This document shows positions 80 to 31,350 of a stretch of 34,932 nt of DNA, in pieces; position 1 is the stretch's first letter; the number at the start of each line of letters is the position of its first letter. The translations under genes were made by a program, and so were the position numbers. The notes under the pieces were generated by a model, which saw nothing but the letters and a program-made list of their open reading frames with translations, did not search any database and had not been told where the DNA came from. The stretch is from an uncultured Bacillota bacterium (GTDB lineage Bacteria > Bacillota_I > Bacilli_A > RF39 > UBA660): contig CAMYZQ010000004.1 of the NCBI GenBank assembly GCA_947303895.1, positions 1 through 34,932 on the forward strand, in the 5' to 3' direction.

Positions 80-1075
80 ATGCTTTCTAACATAAAAAAT
101 ATTGTTGTTTTATCTGGTGGATCAGGTAATGATGCTATTCTTAAAGCTCTTATTGAGATGGGATACAGTGATAGAGACATAAGAGTTATAGTAAATGCTT
201 ATGATGATGGTAAGTCTACAGGAGTTTGTAGAGAAGTTACAGGAACCTTAGGAGTTTCTGATATTGGAAAAAATCATGAAAAACTTCATAAAATGTTTTA
301 TGGTGAAAAAAATCTTTATAAGCCTCTTATGCAGTTATATGAAAATAGAATAGATATAGATTCTAAGTATACTACTACAGATGCATTATTTGATAAAGCA
401 ATTAAAGATTTTTTTCATAGAGATAATGCAAAGTATTTTTCATATAAAAATTTTAATGTGATGAATATTATTTATTCTCAATTTTATTCTTCAATTGGAT
501 ATGAAGCTACTAATGCTTTATTTTCAGGAATTCTAGGATTAGATGATATAGTAAAATTGAATTCATTTGATAATGTTAAAATAATAGCTAAGACTGAAAA
601 AGGTAATATTATTACTGATGAAGGTGATATTGTTGAGTGGAAAAATCCAGAGGACAAAATTATTGACATAGATTTTGTTGGAAAGTCTGTAAGAGGATTA
701 AATCCTGAAGCTCTTAGTTTAATTAAGAATGCTGATTTAATTATTATTTCTACAGGAACATTTTGGAGTTCTCTTTATCCTACTTTAAGCTATTTTGATT
801 TTTATAAATATATAAATGAATCTTCTTCTAAGAAGCTTTGGGTTGTAAATTCAGAACAGGATAAGGATGCTTTTGGAGTTTCAAATATAGAATTTTATAA
901 TTTCATGGATAAACTTGGTTTAAATATGAAAGAGTTTGATATTTTAATCAATACAGAAGCAAATGAAATTCTTAAACAGCCTATTGAAAATAGTAAATTA
1001 TTTGATTTAGGAAATAATAATGGTCGTAATGAATATTCAAAAGTAAAAACAGCTTTAGAACAGATTTATGGATAA
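80..1075 (+). CDS. CofD/YvcK-like (UPF0052) family protein
   Basis: N-terminal VVLSGGSGNDAILKAL...VNAYDDGKSTGVCRE..GVSDIGK resembles the YvcK/CofD GGTG...DDGGSSG...GD pattern; C-terminal ADLIIISTGTFWSSLYPTL. Confidence 0.75.
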   Translation: MLSNIKNIVVLSGGSGNDAILKALIEMGYSDRDIRVIVNAYDDGKSTGVCREVTGTLGVSDIGKNHEKLHKMFYGEKNLYKPLMQLYENRIDIDSKYTTTDALFDKAIKDFFHRDNAKYFSYKNFNVMNIIYSQFYSSIGYEATNALFSGILGLDDIVKLNSFDNVKIIAKTEKGNIITDEGDIVEWKNPEDKIIDIDFVGKSVRGLNPEALSLIKNADLIIISTGTFWSSLYPTLSYFDFYKYINESSSKKLWVVNSEQDKDAFGVSNIEFYNFMDKLGLNMKEFDILINTEANEILKQPIENSKLFDLGNNNGRNEYSKVKTALEQIYG

Positions 1076-24567: not shown

Positions 24568-26496
24568 ATGAATATTAATATTAAATTAAATAGAAATTTT
24601 ACAACTCAGTTAAATAAATTAGACCAAGAATATGGAGAAGAATTTATTAAGCTTCAAGGCATAGATGAAGATAAATTAAGTTTAACTGATTTTATTAACA
24701 ATTTTGTTGTTAGTTCAAATGTTGCAGATGCTTCAGTAGATGCTAATGCAAATATTAGTCAAAAGGATATAGTTACTTTATTAAGTGAAATGTCCAAACC
24801 ACATCAAAAATTATTAGCATATAATAAACTTTATTGTGAAATTCAAGAGCTATATGGTTTTAAAGTTGCTAATGAAGCATTTGAAAAAATGTGGAATTAC
24901 TCAATTTATATGCATGATTTTAATACGGCAACTTTCTTACCATATTGTTTTGCTTATGATATAAAAGATATAGTAGAAAAGGGTTTATTCTTTATAGAGA
25001 ACTATAATGCTCAACCTCCAAAACATTTAGATAGTTTTGTGCAAATTCTTATGGAAGCTGTAGCATTTCTGTCTAGAAGACAGTCTGGAGCTGTAGGATT
25101 ACCGAATTTAATTCCTTATTTATATTATTTTTGGAGTAGAGATGTAAAGCAAGGATATTATACAAAAAGTCCTTGTGTTTATAAAAAACAACAAATACAA
25201 GCTCTTATTTATAGATTAAATCAACCTTGGGTAAGACAGGACCAGGCAGCATTTACTAATGTAAGTGTATTTGATCATCCATATTTTGAGGCTATTTTTG
25301 GAAGTTCACAGTTTCCAGATGGTTCATATATGATAGATGAGGAAGAAGAAATTATTCAGTTCCAAAAAGATTTTATTGATGTAGTCAATGAAGTAAGAGA
25401 AGAAAATATATTTACTTTTCCAGTTTTAACTGCTTCTTTACTTTACCAAGAAGGTAAGTTTGTAGATGAAGATTTTGCAAGATGGGCATGTGAAGCTTCA
25501 AGAAAATGGAATCTATTTAATTTCTTTACTGATAGTACTGTAAATAGTTTAAGTAATTGTTGTAGACTTAAATCAGATGTAACAGAATTATATTTTAATA
25601 GTATTGGTGGAACAGCTCTTAAAGTAGGAAGTACTAAAGTATCTACTCTTAATATTGCTAGATTAGCTTATGCTAGTAGAAATAGTGAAAAGAAATTTTT
25701 AAATTCTCTTAAAATTCTTACTGAGCTTGATCTTATGATTCTCGATGCTCAAAGAAATATTATTAGAAAAAATGTTAAGAAAGGATTACTTCCTAATTTT
25801 GATTCTGGATTAATTGATTTTGAACATCTTTATTCGACAGTGGGTATAAATGGTATTTATGAAACTATTAAGACTTTCGGCTATTTAACTGTTGATGAAT
25901 TAGGAAATACATATTATACTGAGGAAGCTTTTGATCTTGGCAAAAAGATTTTTAAAACTATAAAAGATGTAATTGATGAATTTGTAAAAGATAAAGATTA
26001 TAAAGTCAATATTGAACAAATTCCAGCCGAACAAGCAGCAGTAAAATTACAGACTGCAGATAAGCTTCTTTATCCAAGAAAAGTAGTAAAAGACCTTCCA
26101 CTATATGGTAATCAATGGATCCCACTTGGTATTAAAGCAACAATAGCTGAAAGAACAAAAATCTGTGCGGCTTTTGATTCTTATTGTAATGGTGGAAGTA
26201 TTGAACATATTAATATAGATACTTATTTTGATTCTTTTGAAAAGGCCTGGCATATGCTTAATTGGGTAGCCCAGCAGGGAGTAACTTATTTTGCATTTAA
26301 TGGTAAAGTTTCTCAATGTGAAGAACAACATAGTTTCTATGGTTCTACTTGTCCACACTGTGGAAAACCTTCTGTAGTTGAATATACTAGAGTAGTAGGA
26401 TTTTATACTCCTATAAATACTTGGTCTAAAGAGAGAAGTAGTGAGTATAAACTAAGAGAATGGATGCCTTTAAATGAGAAGGCAGAAAATGCATAA
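24568..26496 (+). CDS. nrdD: anaerobic ribonucleoside-triphosphate reductase
   Basis: C-terminal CEEQHSFYGSTCPHCGKPS zinc site and RVVGFYTPINTWSKER glycyl-radical-type motif. Confidence 0.92.
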   Translation: MNINIKLNRNFTTQLNKLDQEYGEEFIKLQGIDEDKLSLTDFINNFVVSSNVADASVDANANISQKDIVTLLSEMSKPHQKLLAYNKLYCEIQELYGFKVANEAFEKMWNYSIYMHDFNTATFLPYCFAYDIKDIVEKGLFFIENYNAQPPKHLDSFVQILMEAVAFLSRRQSGAVGLPNLIPYLYYFWSRDVKQGYYTKSPCVYKKQQIQALIYRLNQPWVRQDQAAFTNVSVFDHPYFEAIFGSSQFPDGSYMIDEEEEIIQFQKDFIDVVNEVREENIFTFPVLTASLLYQEGKFVDEDFARWACEASRKWNLFNFFTDSTVNSLSNCCRLKSDVTELYFNSIGGTALKVGSTKVSTLNIARLAYASRNSEKKFLNSLKILTELDLMILDAQRNIIRKNVKKGLLPNFDSGLIDFEHLYSTVGINGIYETIKTFGYLTVDELGNTYYTEEAFDLGKKIFKTIKDVIDEFVKDKDYKVNIEQIPAEQAAVKLQTADKLLYPRKVVKDLPLYGNQWIPLGIKATIAERTKICAAFDSYCNGGSIEHINIDTYFDSFEKAWHMLNWVAQQGVTYFAFNGKVSQCEEQHSFYGSTCPHCGKPSVVEYTRVVGFYTPINTWSKERSSEYKLREWMPLNEKAENA

Positions 26497-27122
26497 TGAA
26501 AATAAGAGATATAATTATAGAAGATTTTGTTAATTATAAAAAACCTTCCATGTTTATAAATATGGGAAATTGTGATTGGAAATGTTGTACAGAACAAGGT
26601 TTAGATATTTCTATATGTCAAAATTCTGAAATGGCTTTAATGCCTGAGATAGATATAGAAAGTTCAAAGATTGTAGAAATGTATATTTCTAATCCTATAA
26701 TAGAATCTATAGTTATAGGTGGATTAGAACCTTTTTATAATTTTAAAGATCTATTAGAATTAATAAGTAAATTTAGAAACTTTACAAATGATGATATAGT
26801 AATATATACAGGTTATTATCCATATGAAATTCCAGATAAACTTATGTATCTATCTCAATATGATAATATTATTATTAAATTTGGTAGGTTTATACTTGGA
26901 GATGATAAACATTTTGATCAAGTATTAGGCGTAGAATTAGCTAGTGACAATCAATATGCAGTAAAATTAAATAAAGGAACACAAAAAATAATAAAAGCAA
27001 TGGCAAATAATAATGGTTACTGTCCTTGTAGAATAGATAAAAACGAAGATACTAAATGTTGTTGTCTAGATTTTAGAAATAAATTTGAAGAAAAATGCCA
27101 CTGTGGAATCTTTAGTAAATAA
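26496..27122 (+). CDS. nrdG: anaerobic RNR activating radical-SAM protein
   Basis: Adjacent to nrdD; MGNCDWKCCTEQGLDISICQNSE Cys cluster, GGLEPFYN. Confidence 0.8.
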   Translation: MKIRDIIIEDFVNYKKPSMFINMGNCDWKCCTEQGLDISICQNSEMALMPEIDIESSKIVEMYISNPIIESIVIGGLEPFYNFKDLLELISKFRNFTNDDIVIYTGYYPYEIPDKLMYLSQYDNIIIKFGRFILGDDKHFDQVLGVELASDNQYAVKLNKGTQKIIKAMANNNGYCPCRIDKNEDTKCCCLDFRNKFEEKCHCGIFSK

Positions 27123-28777: not shown

Positions 28778-28958
28778 GTATTCAATAACCGCCAACCTTC
28801 GATCGAAGAGCAAGAGGCGAGCTCATTAAAAACGCTGATGAGTTGGTTAAGACGTGGGAAACTCCCCGTATGAGTAGGTTACATTAATGCGGTTACTACT
28901 CAATTAGGAGATAACCCGTTACGTCGGGGAGATGATAAAAAAACGTAGCGGGTATTAT
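28778..28958 (+). ncRNA. unassigned structured RNA upstream of tRNA-fMet
   Basis: Visibly less AT-rich than flanks; inverted repeats TAACCGC/GCGGTTA, TGAGTAG/CTACTCA, CCAAC/GTTGG, CTTCgatcGAAG, ACCCGTTACGT/ACGTAGCGGGT. Confidence 0.5.
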
Positions 28959-29118: not shown

Positions 29119-29200
29119 GGGGATGAATATGGTTTCGGTATGGCTTAAAAGCCAAAGTGCATAGCTGTACACCTCGGTTCGATTCCGAGCATCTCCACCA
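29119..29200 (+). ncRNA. tmRNA tRNA-like-domain-like / aberrant tRNA-like RNA
   Basis: Acceptor GGGGATG/CATCTCC with G3.U70, T-arm CTCGG-TTCGATT-CCGAG, ACCA end; no D-stem, no normal 7-nt anticodon loop; 5' GGGGaTGAaTaTGGtTTCG resembles tmRNA 5' end. Confidence 0.6.
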
Positions 29201-29243
29201 AAAGGGCATATGCCTTGTATATATACATAAAATTCAGATTAAA

Positions 29244-29326
29244 TGGCTCGTTAAAGGAAAAGCCTTTACTAAAGAGAGAATTGATCTTTAGTTACTGGTT
29301 CTGAAGCTGTTCTAGTAAGTCAGCCA
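29244..29326 (+). ncRNA. four-helix-junction RNA between tRNA-like genes
   Basis: P1 TGGCT/AGCCA; P2 TAAAGG/CCTTTA; P3 CTAAAGA/TCTTTAG; P4 TTACTGG/CTAGTAA; zero-nucleotide linkers between P2, P3 and P4. Confidence 0.5.
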
Positions 29327-29340
29327 GCGGTAGATGTTTT

Positions 29341-29417
29341 GCTCCTGTATCCCAACAGGCAGAGGAAGCGGACTTAAAATCCGTATAGTGCAGGTTCGAA
29401 TCCAGCCAGGAGCACCA
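29341..29417 (+). tRNA. tRNA with TAA anticodon (Leu), short variable loop
   Basis: GCTCCTG/CAGGAGC acceptor, GCGGA-CTTAAAA-TCCGT anticodon arm, TTCGAAT T-loop, ACCA. Confidence 0.85.
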
Positions 29418-29422
29418 ATATG

Positions 29423-29472
29423 TAGATACTTACAGTAATATAATTAATAAAAAGATTTTTAATTAGTATCTA
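29423..29472 (+). ncRNA. R0: stem-bulge RNA element, 5' of TROVE/DUF2828-like gene
   Basis: TAGATACT / AGTATCTA perfect 8-bp stem with TACAGTAA immediately after the 5' strand. Confidence 0.6.
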
Positions 29473-29486
29473 GGAGGGAAATGGAT

Positions 29487-31037
29487 ATGATTAAGGAAAG
29501 AAAGAACTTTGTAGAAGCATTGAAGACTCAGAACAGTAAGAAGAAGACTTTTACTGAAAATGGTGCTGTGGCGTATGAAACTACAGGCAAGTATTTACTT
29601 GACTTTAATTTCAAGCTGTCTCAGTACAGAAATATGAGTGTTGAGGAGATTAAGAAGGACTTTGCTAAGGTTTACTTCGAAGATCCTAAGCTTGCTACAA
29701 AGTTTATTTTTTATATTGGAGATGCTAGAGGCGGTCTCGGTGAAAGAAGAACTTTCAATGCTTGCATTGATTGGCTTGTAGAAAATAATTCTGAAGTTGC
29801 TGCTAAAGTAGTTAAATTTATCCCTGAATATACTCGTTGGGATAATCTTGTTAAACTTATCAGAAGTAGAAATAAGTATATTTCAACAATAGTGACAGTT
29901 GCTATTGGAAATCAACTTATTGAAGATTTGGATAACATGGCTGCTGGAAAGAGTGTTTCTCTTTGTGCTAAATGGCTTCCTTCAATAAATGCATCTTCTG
30001 CTGAGACAAGATCTTTGGCTAATTTTCTTTGTAATCAGCTTTGTCTTACTCCTAAGAAATATAGAAAGACTCTTTCTGCTCTTAGAAAGTATCTTGATGT
30101 AGTTGAAGTCAAGATGTCTGCAAATGAGTGGAATAAGATCGATTATTCTAAAGTACCATCTCTTGCTAATATCAAATATACAGATGCATTTTATAGAAAT
30201 GATCCTTATAGAAGAGTGGAATATCTTGCTTCTCTTAAGAGAGGCGAGACAAAAATTAATGCTTCTGTTTCTCAGCCTCATGAGATAGTAAGAAGATATT
30301 ATAATCAGCCTAATTCTTGGTGGCATGAAATAAAAGAAGTTGATACAGCACTTGAAGAAATGTGGAAGGCTTTGCCGAATATTTCAGTAGAAGATAGTCT
30401 CATAGTTAGAGATGGTTCTGGTTCTATGTGCTGTTCTGTAGGCCATAATTCTAAGACAACTTGTCTTGATGTAGCTACAGCTCTTACTATTTATTGTGCA
30501 GAGCATAATTCTAATATTTGGAAGGATAAGTTTATTACTTTTTCTTCTAGACCTAAGTTTGTAGATCTTTCTAATTGCAAAACACTTAGAGATAAGCTTA
30601 TTAGGTGTGATGCAGAAGATGATTGTTCTAACACTAATATTGAAGCTACAATGAGGCTTATTCTTGATACTGCTATTGAGAATAATCTTTCTCAGGAAGA
30701 CATGCCTAAGAATATTGTAATTATTTCTGATATGCAGTTTGATGCGAGAAGAAATAGCTTCAATTGGAATAAGACATTGTTTGAGCAGATTGCTGAGGAT
30801 TATGCTGAAGCTGGATATAAGCTTCCAAAGATCTGTTTCTGGAATGTTTGTTCTAGAAATTTTGATACTATTCCTATGCAGAATAACGAACTTGGTCTTG
30901 TTCTTTGTAGTGGATTTTCTATTACTAATATGAATATGTTTATGAGTGGAGAAATTAATCCATATAAAGTTCTTGTTGAACAGATTAATGGTGAAAGATA
31001 TGATCCTATTGACAAAGCAATAAATAATATAATATAA
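29487..31037 (+). CDS. TROVE/DUF2828-like protein with C-terminal vWA (MIDAS) domain
   Basis: FIFYIGDARGGLGERRTFNACIDWL; KWLPS..KKYRKTLSALRKYLDVVE; LIVRDGSGSM (DxSxS), NTNIEATM, NIVIISDMQFD; ATG 29487 better spaced from AGGAGGG than 29481. Confidence 0.8.
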   Translation: MIKERKNFVEALKTQNSKKKTFTENGAVAYETTGKYLLDFNFKLSQYRNMSVEEIKKDFAKVYFEDPKLATKFIFYIGDARGGLGERRTFNACIDWLVENNSEVAAKVVKFIPEYTRWDNLVKLIRSRNKYISTIVTVAIGNQLIEDLDNMAAGKSVSLCAKWLPSINASSAETRSLANFLCNQLCLTPKKYRKTLSALRKYLDVVEVKMSANEWNKIDYSKVPSLANIKYTDAFYRNDPYRRVEYLASLKRGETKINASVSQPHEIVRRYYNQPNSWWHEIKEVDTALEEMWKALPNISVEDSLIVRDGSGSMCCSVGHNSKTTCLDVATALTIYCAEHNSNIWKDKFITFSSRPKFVDLSNCKTLRDKLIRCDAEDDCSNTNIEATMRLILDTAIENNLSQEDMPKNIVIISDMQFDARRNSFNWNKTLFEQIAEDYAEAGYKLPKICFWNVCSRNFDTIPMQNNELGLVLCSGFSITNMNMFMSGEINPYKVLVEQINGERYDPIDKAINNII

Positions 31038-31042
31038 TTGGT

Positions 31043-31125
31043 TAGATGCTTACAGCAACATTTAAAGGATTTTTCTTTATTATATCTTAGCATTAAGACA
31101 TTTAATAACATAAATATAGCATCTA
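31043..31125 (+). ncRNA. R1: stem-bulge RNA element
   Basis: TAGATGCT / AGCATCTA perfect 8-bp stem, TACAGCAAC bulge, inner hairpins AAAG..CTTT and TCTTA-gcat-TAAGA. Confidence 0.6.
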
Positions 31126-31134
31126 GTGAAAATT

Positions 31135-31194
31135 TAGGCACTAACAGCAACACATAAAACGATAATTGCAAATTATGGAGTAATATAGTGTCTA
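31135..31194 (+). ncRNA. R2: stem-bulge RNA element
   Basis: TAGGCACT / AGTGTCTA stem (one G.U), AACAGCAAC bulge, inner ATAATT-gca-AATTAT hairpin. Confidence 0.55.
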
Positions 31195-31205
31195 GTCGAA
31201 TTTAA

Positions 31206-31288
31206 GCTTCATTGGTGGAATTGGTAGACACGCAAGATTTAGGATCTTGTGCCTATGCGTATAGGTTCGAGTCCTATATGAAGCACCA
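31206..31288 (+). tRNA. tRNA-Leu (TAG), class II
   Basis: GCTTCAT/ATGAAGC acceptor, CAAGA-TTTAGGA-TCTTG anticodon arm, variable arm TGCCTATGCGT, ATAGG-TTCGAGT-CCTAT T-arm, ACCA. Confidence 0.93.
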
Positions 31289-31289
31289 T

Positions 31290-31349
31290 AAACCACTTAC
31301 AGCAAATATATGCATTAGACTGGTAATCTAAATTGGCAAAACGTGGTTT
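31290..31349 (+). ncRNA. R3: stem-bulge RNA element with tRNA-anticodon-like hairpin
   Basis: AAACCAC / GTGGTTT stem, TTACAGCAA after 5' strand, inner TTAGA-CTGGTAA-TCTAA hairpin. Confidence 0.55.
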
Positions 31350-31350
31350 G

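What the first reader, a model, noticed from the sequence alone, without database searches (positions are those of the whole stretch)
29423..31349. Candidate phage Ro60/Y-RNA-like RNP: TROVE/DUF2828-like vWA protein flanked by four related structured RNAs
Sequence shows: a 517-aa protein with a complete MIDAS-type vWA (DGSGS, T, D) and an N-terminal region reading like DUF2828/TROVE. It is bracketed by R0 (29423-29472), R1 (31043-31125), R2 (31135-31194) and R3 (31290-31349). Each RNA is closed by a 7-8 bp helix and has (U/A)ACAG(C/U)AA directly after the 5' strand: TAGATACTTACAGTAA, TAGATGCTTACAGCAA, TAGGCACTAACAGCAA, AAACCACTTACAGCAA. In R0 and R1 the stems are perfect, with stem sequence co-varying (ATAC/GTAT vs ATGC/GCAT). 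Established knowledge: Ro60/Rsr TROVE proteins bind Y RNAs often encoded next to them, and some bacterial Y RNAs mimic tRNA. Inference: R0-R3 are ligands or guides of this protein, interspersed among tRNAs so that tRNA processing releases them.
Basis: partly seen in the sequence, partly recalled or inferred. Interest (0 to 1): 0.9.

Follow-up and report, generated by a model that had tools for sequence, protein, structure and literature searches.

The report
Phage Ro60-like protein with tRNA-mimic RNAs
This phage carries a distant viral cousin of the human Ro60 autoantigen beside four small RNAs of a widespread, uncatalogued family that often imitate parts of transfer RNA, which suggests a common viral RNA-protein machine that few have looked at.

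Summary
CTWACAGYAA occurs exactly four times in the window, all in R0-R3. The protein is DUF2828+DUF7788 (PHROG 850); its AlphaFold model matches Ro60/TROVE structures in the seven best PDB hits, although no TROVE sequence model detects it. A covariance model built without the window finds R0-R3 as its only significant window hits. The module, an ~8-bp covarying stem (AAGRYRCN/NGYRYCUUG) followed by N-ACAGCAA, recurs beside this gene in phages of Listeria, Mycobacterium, E. coli, Campylobacter, Staphylococcus, Bacillus and others. Searching IMG/VR by RNA pattern alone gave at least 119 contigs (permuted core: 1); at least 79 encode the protein. It is not in Rfam. The RNAs come in three forms: short ones, often with a perfect anticodon stem-loop mimic (Lys-UUU commonest; R3 = GGU, R2 = GCA); circularly permuted tRNAs (YrlA-like); and complete tRNAs carrying the module at the anticodon. 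In 47 of 94 genes one element sits in the leader, often abutting the Shine-Dalgarno; R0 is such an element. Best reading: a Ro60-type RNP whose protein probably represses its own mRNA through R0, while R1-R3 act in trans as tRNA-mimicking Y-like RNAs. Binding, processing and purpose are untested.

The parts
29487..31037 (+). DUF2828+DUF7788 (vWA) protein, PHROG 850, predicted Ro60/TROVE-like fold; alternative start 29481
29422..29473 (+). R0: stem UAGAUACU/AGUAUCUA + U + ACAGUAA; the 3' strand runs into the SD (CUAGGAGGG) of the protein gene: predicted autoregulatory leader element
31042..31126 (+). R1: stem UUAGAUGCU/AGCAUCUAG + U + ACAGCAA, long interior, no clear tRNA-like part
31134..31195 (+). 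R2: stem UUAGGCACU/AGUGUCUAG + A + ACAGCAA; interior holds a 4-bp anticodon-like hairpin AUAA-UUGCAAA-UUAU (GCA)
   Evidence: loop pattern as tested
31289..31350 (+). R3: stem AAACCAC/GUGGUUU, mismatch, ACAGCAA; interior holds a perfect anticodon stem-loop mimic UUAGA-CUGGUAA-UCUAA (GGU)
   Evidence: loop pattern as tested
29341..29417 (+). tRNA-Leu(UAA) directly upstream of R0
31206..31288 (+). tRNA-Leu(UAG) between R2 and R3

Best explanation
The locus encodes a phage ribonucleoprotein of the Ro60/Y-RNA type. The DUF2828-DUF7788 protein is a remote Ro60-like protein (helical domain plus vWA domain). It most likely recognises one RNA module: an ~8-bp stem (AAGRYRCN/NGYRYCUUG, pairing kept, sequence free to covary) followed on the 5' side by N-ACAGCAA. 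The same module is built into (a) the leader of its own mRNA, next to the Shine-Dalgarno (R0), where binding would block translation, and (b) small RNAs in the tRNA cluster (R1-R3). Those RNAs present tRNA-like parts: anticodon stem-loops, circularly permuted tRNAs, or tRNAs with the module at the anticodon. They probably tether, gate or divert tRNA-acting factors to or from the protein. Shown here: the RNA family, its covariation, its link to the gene, the tRNA mimicry, the leader position and the predicted fold. Inferred: binding, autoregulation, release between tRNAs, and the final purpose.
For: Fold: the seven best of 350,542 PDB chains are all Ro60/TROVE (E 5e-10 to 1e-5, TMq 0.45-0.55), including the Thermus phage phiLo Ro60; plain vWA domains follow at TMq ~0.2. 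RNA to gene: the pattern alone finds at least 119 IMG/VR contigs against 1 for a permuted core; 56 carry DUF2828 in the held stretch, all on the same strand, median distance 250 nt, plus 23 of 50 more elsewhere on the contig. Gene to RNA: 76 stem+ACAGCAA elements on the gene strand, 2 on the other, mean 2.9 for permuted motifs; elements in 12 of 15 named or fecal phage records. Stems: 41% of ACAGCAA sites have a stem of 7 or more against 4.7% after shuffling downstream DNA. Mimicry: 57 of 205 short elements hold an anticodon stem-loop (7.8 expected), 44 with 5 bp (3.1 expected), and CUUUUAA makes 16 of these 44; T-arm in 44 of 278 (0.55 expected); 25 complete tRNAs carry the module at the anticodon, none in controls. 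Leader: 31 of 94 own genes have an element ending 5-17 nt before the start codon, against 1 of 882 other genes. Literature: in Listeria phage CKA15 a homologue was found in purified virions and HHpred related it to Deinococcus Rsr (PMC12282133).
Against: No binding, expression or processing data for this phage. Sequence comparison with TROVE is weak: no Pfam TROVE hit, and hhalign probability 49% against two TROVE proteins, mostly over the vWA domain. R0 and R1 show no clear tRNA-like part. About 40 of the 119 RNA-pattern contigs show no gene, though many are fragments. The covariation count is partly circular, because elements were chosen for having a stem; the controls do not share that flaw. 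Loci within IMG/VR are not independent of each other.
Confidence: 0.68

Rival explanations
1. The elements act only in cis: they are operators or processing signals in the mRNAs and tRNA arrays that bind the protein or a nuclease, and no separate small RNA is used.
For: Half of the genes have an element in their own leader, often fused to the SD; the elements lie between tRNAs in one direction of transcription.
Against: Elements also occur in tandem arrays of three with no gene in between (Staphylococcus S-CoN_Ph7, Listeria cka15, MiniLon) and downstream of the gene; their interiors carry tRNA-like parts under selection, which a pure processing signal does not need. The long mycobacteriophage form has a YrlA core.
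Confidence: 0.17
2. The elements are decayed or intron-interrupted tRNA genes of phage tRNA clusters, and their vicinity to DUF2828 reflects only that both live in such clusters.
For: Form C is a complete tRNA with an insert at the anticodon; the gene is usually in a tRNA cluster.
Against: The module is found within a median of 250 nt of the gene, always on its strand, and beside genes with few or no tRNAs (Vibrio ValKK3, Campylobacter F367); the stem and ACAGCAA are conserved while tRNA parts vary, the reverse of decay.
Confidence: 0.06
3. The repeats are DNA-level elements (recombination or replication sites, mobile repeats, terminators).
For: Several copies per locus.
Against: Compensatory pair changes at 7 of 8 stem positions (with the caveat on selection), strand bias 76 to 2, conserved single-stranded core on one side only, no U-run after the stem, bodies of different sequence.
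Confidence: 0.02

Closest known systems
YrlA / bacterial Y RNAs with Rsr (Rfam RF02553)
   Same: Ends pair to form a protein-binding stem; long forms here contain a circularly permuted tRNA (T-arm, closed acceptor, D-arm) that matches the YrlA core at 42.0 bits (L022) and 37.7 bits (mycobacteriophage MiniLon); encoded beside a Ro-like protein.
   Different: Matches cover only model positions 23-89 and lie below the family cut-off (69); the YrlA stem consensus (cggCga-AUGCU-uggGgaa) is not the N-ACAGCAA module. Short forms with anticodon stem-loops and unpermuted tRNA forms are not part of YrlA as modelled.
Ro60/Rsr (TROVE, PF05731; 1YVR, 1YVP, 2I91; Thermus phage phiLo Ro60 9L5Y)
   Same: Predicted overall fold with helical N-terminal region and C-terminal vWA with MIDAS.
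   Different: 11-16% identity in the structural alignments, not found by PF05731; belongs to DUF2828/DUF7788.
Putative Y RNAs of Listeria phage CKA15 (PMC12282133)
   Same: Homologue CKA15_055 (35% identical to ours) lies downstream of highly transcribed non-coding regions that the authors suspected to be Y RNAs.
   Different: No motif or RNA was defined there. The region they place at 26,236-26,727 matches ROOL RNA (RF03087, 90.1 bits), not this family; the three elements found here lie at about 25,287-25,552, directly before the gene.
'Ro-like RNA binding protein' of cluster L/C mycobacteriophages
   Same: Same protein family as ours by tblastn; structural similarity to human RO60 was reported for clusters C and AF (PMC12363180).
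   Different: Those annotations name no RNA partner. Chen et al. 2014 is cited in PMC12282133 for Y RNAs in mycobacteriophages; that paper is not held and could not be compared in detail.

Membership tests
DUF2828 / DUF7788 (PHROG 850) | Profile match above the curated cut-off | tested here: met
   PF11443 132 bits (cut-off 29), PF25043 143 bits (27.1), phrog_850 E 2.8e-123
Ro60/TROVE | TROVE sequence profile (PF05731) | tested here: not met
   No hit at E up to 10 nor for any of 13 homologues at E up to 1; hhalign 48.6%
Ro60/TROVE | Ro60 overall fold | tested here: met
   Top seven PDB matches all Ro60/TROVE; model pLDDT 80, pTM 0.74; a prediction, not a structure
Ro60/TROVE | vWA domain with MIDAS | tested here: met
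   DGSGS, T and SD invariant or nearly so in the alignment
Ro60/TROVE | Binds Y RNA on the outer surface and RNA ends in the central cavity | not testable with these tools
   Needs binding or structural experiments
Y RNA / YrlA | 5' and 3' ends pair into a stem with a conserved motif | tested here: met
   R0-R3 and 278 distinct elements
Y RNA / YrlA | Rfam YrlA score above gathering cut-off | tested here: not met
   R0-R3: no match; long relatives 37-42 bits against 69
Y RNA / YrlA | tRNA-like effector domain | tested here: inconclusive
   Met by a subset; in the window only anticodon stem-loop mimics in R2 and R3, nothing clear in R0 and R1
Y RNA / YrlA | Gene next to a Ro-like gene | tested here: met
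Y RNA / YrlA | Expressed as a stable RNA bound by the protein | not testable with these tools
   No expression data for this phage

The most novel reading that the evidence does not exclude
The phage RNP is a counter-defence device: the Ro60-like protein holds arrays of RNAs that display anticodon stem-loops (Lys-UUU above all, then Asn, Ser, Cys, Tyr) or tRNA bodies with the anticodon replaced. They act as decoys or traps for host tRNA-cutting enzymes (anticodon nucleases), with the protein adjusting its own level through a leader copy of the same module. Supported only by the enrichment of real tRNA-like anticodon loops (16 of 44 five-bp stem-loops are CUUUUAA; shuffles give 3% UUU) and by the location in tRNA clusters.
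Probability: 0.22. Interest if true: 0.93.

Novelty: new variant of a known kind. Interest (0 to 1): 0.82.

Why it matters
It would give the DUF2828 family, found in at least 682 phage records and named only as domains of unknown function, an RNA partner, a testable binding motif and a likely mode of self-control. It would turn Ro60/Y RNA, known mostly from animals and a few bacteria, into a common viral RNP. The anticodon stem-loop forms and the two circularly permuted designs (tRNA opened at the anticodon or at the acceptor) make the question of what Y RNAs are for directly testable in laboratory phages. The motif also explains some odd 'undetermined' tRNA annotations.

Tried and rejected
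Rfam at gathering and at permissive thresholds: no family for R0-R3. Single-sequence folding: not significant for R0-R3, so not used as evidence. DNA similarity of the region to known phages: only tRNA genes match. TROVE (PF05731) in RNA-pattern contigs without DUF2828 on the held stretch: none of 50, so a canonical Ro60 does not replace it there. YrlA search in related bacteria: hits below cut-off; the best one inspected (L101) spans two tandem tRNA genes, so the hits were not used. That the CKA15 high-expression region is a Y RNA: rejected for the one region with coordinates, which matches ROOL. That the anticodon loops arise from A+T-rich composition: shuffles and a reversed-loop control give far fewer, and G+C-richer MiniLon also has one (UUUCA-CUGCUAA-UGAAA). 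Not pursued: structures of RNA-protein complexes (no tool).

Full report
1. The observation. The window is a whole contig (C4) of a 1.13-Mb, 71% complete assembly. It is phage DNA: UvsX-like recombinase, SbcC/SbcD-like nuclease, clamp loader parts, sliding-clamp-like factor, anaerobic ribonucleotide reductase, and a tRNA cluster. At 29487-31037 lies a 516-aa protein. Pfam gives DUF2828 and DUF7788, PHROGs gives family 850 'RNA-binding protein'; 682 phage records hold homologues.

2. The protein. An AlphaFold2 model from 13 homologues reached pLDDT 80 and pTM 0.74. Foldseek against the PDB returned Ro60/TROVE structures as all seven hits with E below 0.001 (TMq 0.45-0.55), among them Ro60 of Thermus phage phiLo; the best ordinary vWA hits reach only about 0.2. 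By sequence the link is weak: no TROVE Pfam match, no Ro60 in sequence searches of the PDB, hhalign 49% to two TROVE proteins. I therefore call it Ro60-like by predicted fold, not a TROVE family member by sequence. 'Ro-like' annotation of relatives in mycobacteriophages and a structural remark on them already exist (PMC12363180).

3. The RNAs are a family. In about 83 non-redundant IMG/VR loci that encode relatives, an 8-bp stem directly followed by N-ACAGCAA occurs 76 times on the gene strand and twice on the other; 40 permuted motifs average 2.9 (the two highest, AACAGCA and CAGCAAA, overlap the true motif). Of 291 ACAGCAA sites 41% have a stem of at least 7 against 4.7% when the downstream DNA is shuffled. 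The consensus is WWAGRYRCN-N-ACAGCAA ... N'GYRYCUWG, with a nearly invariant final G. Seven of eight stem pairs change on both sides (partly circular since elements were chosen for a stem, but sliding and shuffling controls fall far below). A covariance model that excludes the window finds R0-R3 and nothing else significant in the window, and seven places in the whole assembly; on 18 further loci all 29 hits at E up to 1 are on the gene strand.

4. Link to the protein in both directions. Fifty-six carry the DUF2828 gene within the held stretch, always on the same strand, median distance 250 nt; of 50 of the rest searched whole, 23 more do, none a TROVE gene. In 85,462 bacterial and archaeal genomes a sister pattern gave only 14 places, eight with a full-length gene nearby and one with a fragment. 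Named phages with elements beside the gene: Listeria cka15 (three in tandem), Mycobacterium MiniLon (three), Staphylococcus S-CoN_Ph7 (three), Escherichia wV8, Campylobacter F367, Bacillus PJN02, Enterococcus VRE9_4 and EFDG1, Klebsiella KP13-26, Cronobacter S13, Vibrio ValKK3, Sinorhizobium phiM12. Synechococcus B23 has variants (UUCAGCAA, UAACUGCAA); Aeromonas phiWae14 showed none.

5. Three designs. (A) Short RNAs, about 60 nt. Of 205, 57 hold an anticodon stem-loop mimic (loop YUNNNAW, at least 4 bp) against 7.8 expected; 44 against 3.1 with 5 bp; a reversed loop gives 6. Sixteen of the 44 five-bp loops are CUUUUAA (Lys), then CUGUUAA (Asn), CUUGAAA and CUGCUAA (Ser), CUGCAAA (Cys), CUGUAAA (Tyr); shuffles give UUU in 3%. 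Window R3 is UUAGA-CUGGUAA-UCUAA (GGU), R2 AUAA-UUGCAAA-UUAU (GCA). (B) Long RNAs: 44 of 278 contain a T-arm (0.55 expected), many in the order T-arm, closed acceptor, D-arm, that is a tRNA opened at the anticodon, the topology of the YrlA core, which they match below cut-off. (C) Complete tRNAs with the module as a closed hairpin at the anticodon: 25 of 34 closed hairpins, acceptor pairing 6-7 of 7, none in controls; Cronobacter S13 'tRNA-Ser' and 'tRNA-OTHER' and B23 'tRNA-Undet' have this layout with variant cores. B and C are circular permutations of one design: stem-ACAGCAA module plus tRNA body.

6. The leader element. In 47 of 94 loci an element lies in the leader of the protein's own gene. 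In 31 its 3' strand ends 5-17 nt before the start codon, so that the conserved CUUG/CUAG often continues as the Shine-Dalgarno (CUUGGAG, CUAGGAGG). Of 882 other gene starts in the same loci one shows this. R0 is exactly this arrangement (AGUAUCUAGGAGGGAAAUGGAUAUG). I infer autogenous repression: free protein binds its own leader until the small RNAs take it up.

7. How it probably works. R1-R3 would be transcribed with the tRNAs and freed as these are processed (inference). The protein binds them by the stem-ACAGCAA module, leaving the tRNA-like part exposed (inference). By analogy to Deinococcus, where Y RNA tethers Rsr to PNPase (reported in PMC7790460), the tRNA-like part may recruit or divert a tRNA-acting factor. 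Whether that serves RNA repair, surveillance, or defence against anticodon nucleases cannot be decided here; a tRNA-mimic competitive-inhibitor role was suggested for YrlA in PMC7790460. The CKA15 homologue was found in purified virions, with the authors' own caution about mass-spectrometry sensitivity (PMC12282133).

8. Known or new. The kind (Ro60 with Y RNA, and Y RNA suspected or reported in some phages) is known. The module, its spread, the anticodon-loop class, the paired permuted and unpermuted tRNA designs and the leader operator were not found in Rfam or in the papers I could search; Chen et al. 2014 and work behind PDB 9L5Y were not available, so priority is not claimed for every part.

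Noticed in passing
window 29119-29200: An 82-nt tmRNA-like RNA (Rfam RF00023, 58.2 bits) with acceptor, tmRNA-type 5' region, T-arm and CCA, but almost no middle part; a similar sequence is in L001 (3621-3703) and L020.
   Followed up: partly
window 28780-28955 and 29203-29335: Two further non-coding stretches of the tRNA cluster look conserved in L001, the second also in L020 (e.g. GAGCTCATTAAAAA...ATTACATTAATGCGGTT; TTCAGATTAAATG...GTAAGWCAGCCAGCG); neither matched an Rfam family.
   Followed up: no
L107:5461-6012 (Listeria phage cka15 about 26,195-26,746): The most transcribed non-coding region of phage CKA15 (PMC12282133) matches ROOL RNA (RF03087) with 90.1 bits, E 4e-17, just below the cut-off of 99.1.
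   Followed up: yes
L228:4902-5144 and L237:4875-4984: Genes annotated tRNA-Ser, tRNA-OTHER and tRNA-Undet in Cronobacter phage S13 and Synechococcus phage B23 are tRNAs with the module (variant cores AUUCAGCA, UAACUGCAA) inserted at the anticodon.
   Followed up: partly
G000:C20:11336-12880 (L020) and G000:C9:251-314: A second, 83% identical copy of the protein with two elements lies on another contig of the same assembly, and one more element at the end of contig C9 next to tRNA genes: probably related phages in one bin.
   Followed up: partly
L027:5350-5459: A drum RNA (RF02958, 78.5 bits) lies in the same kind of tRNA/DUF2828 cluster.
   Followed up: no
window 80-1075: CofD-like protein (PF01933, E 2.9e-21), an unusual gene for a phage.
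   Followed up: no
DUF2828 outside phages: The few papers that name DUF2828 are on plants; if the family is Ro60-like, plant members may be too.
   Followed up: no
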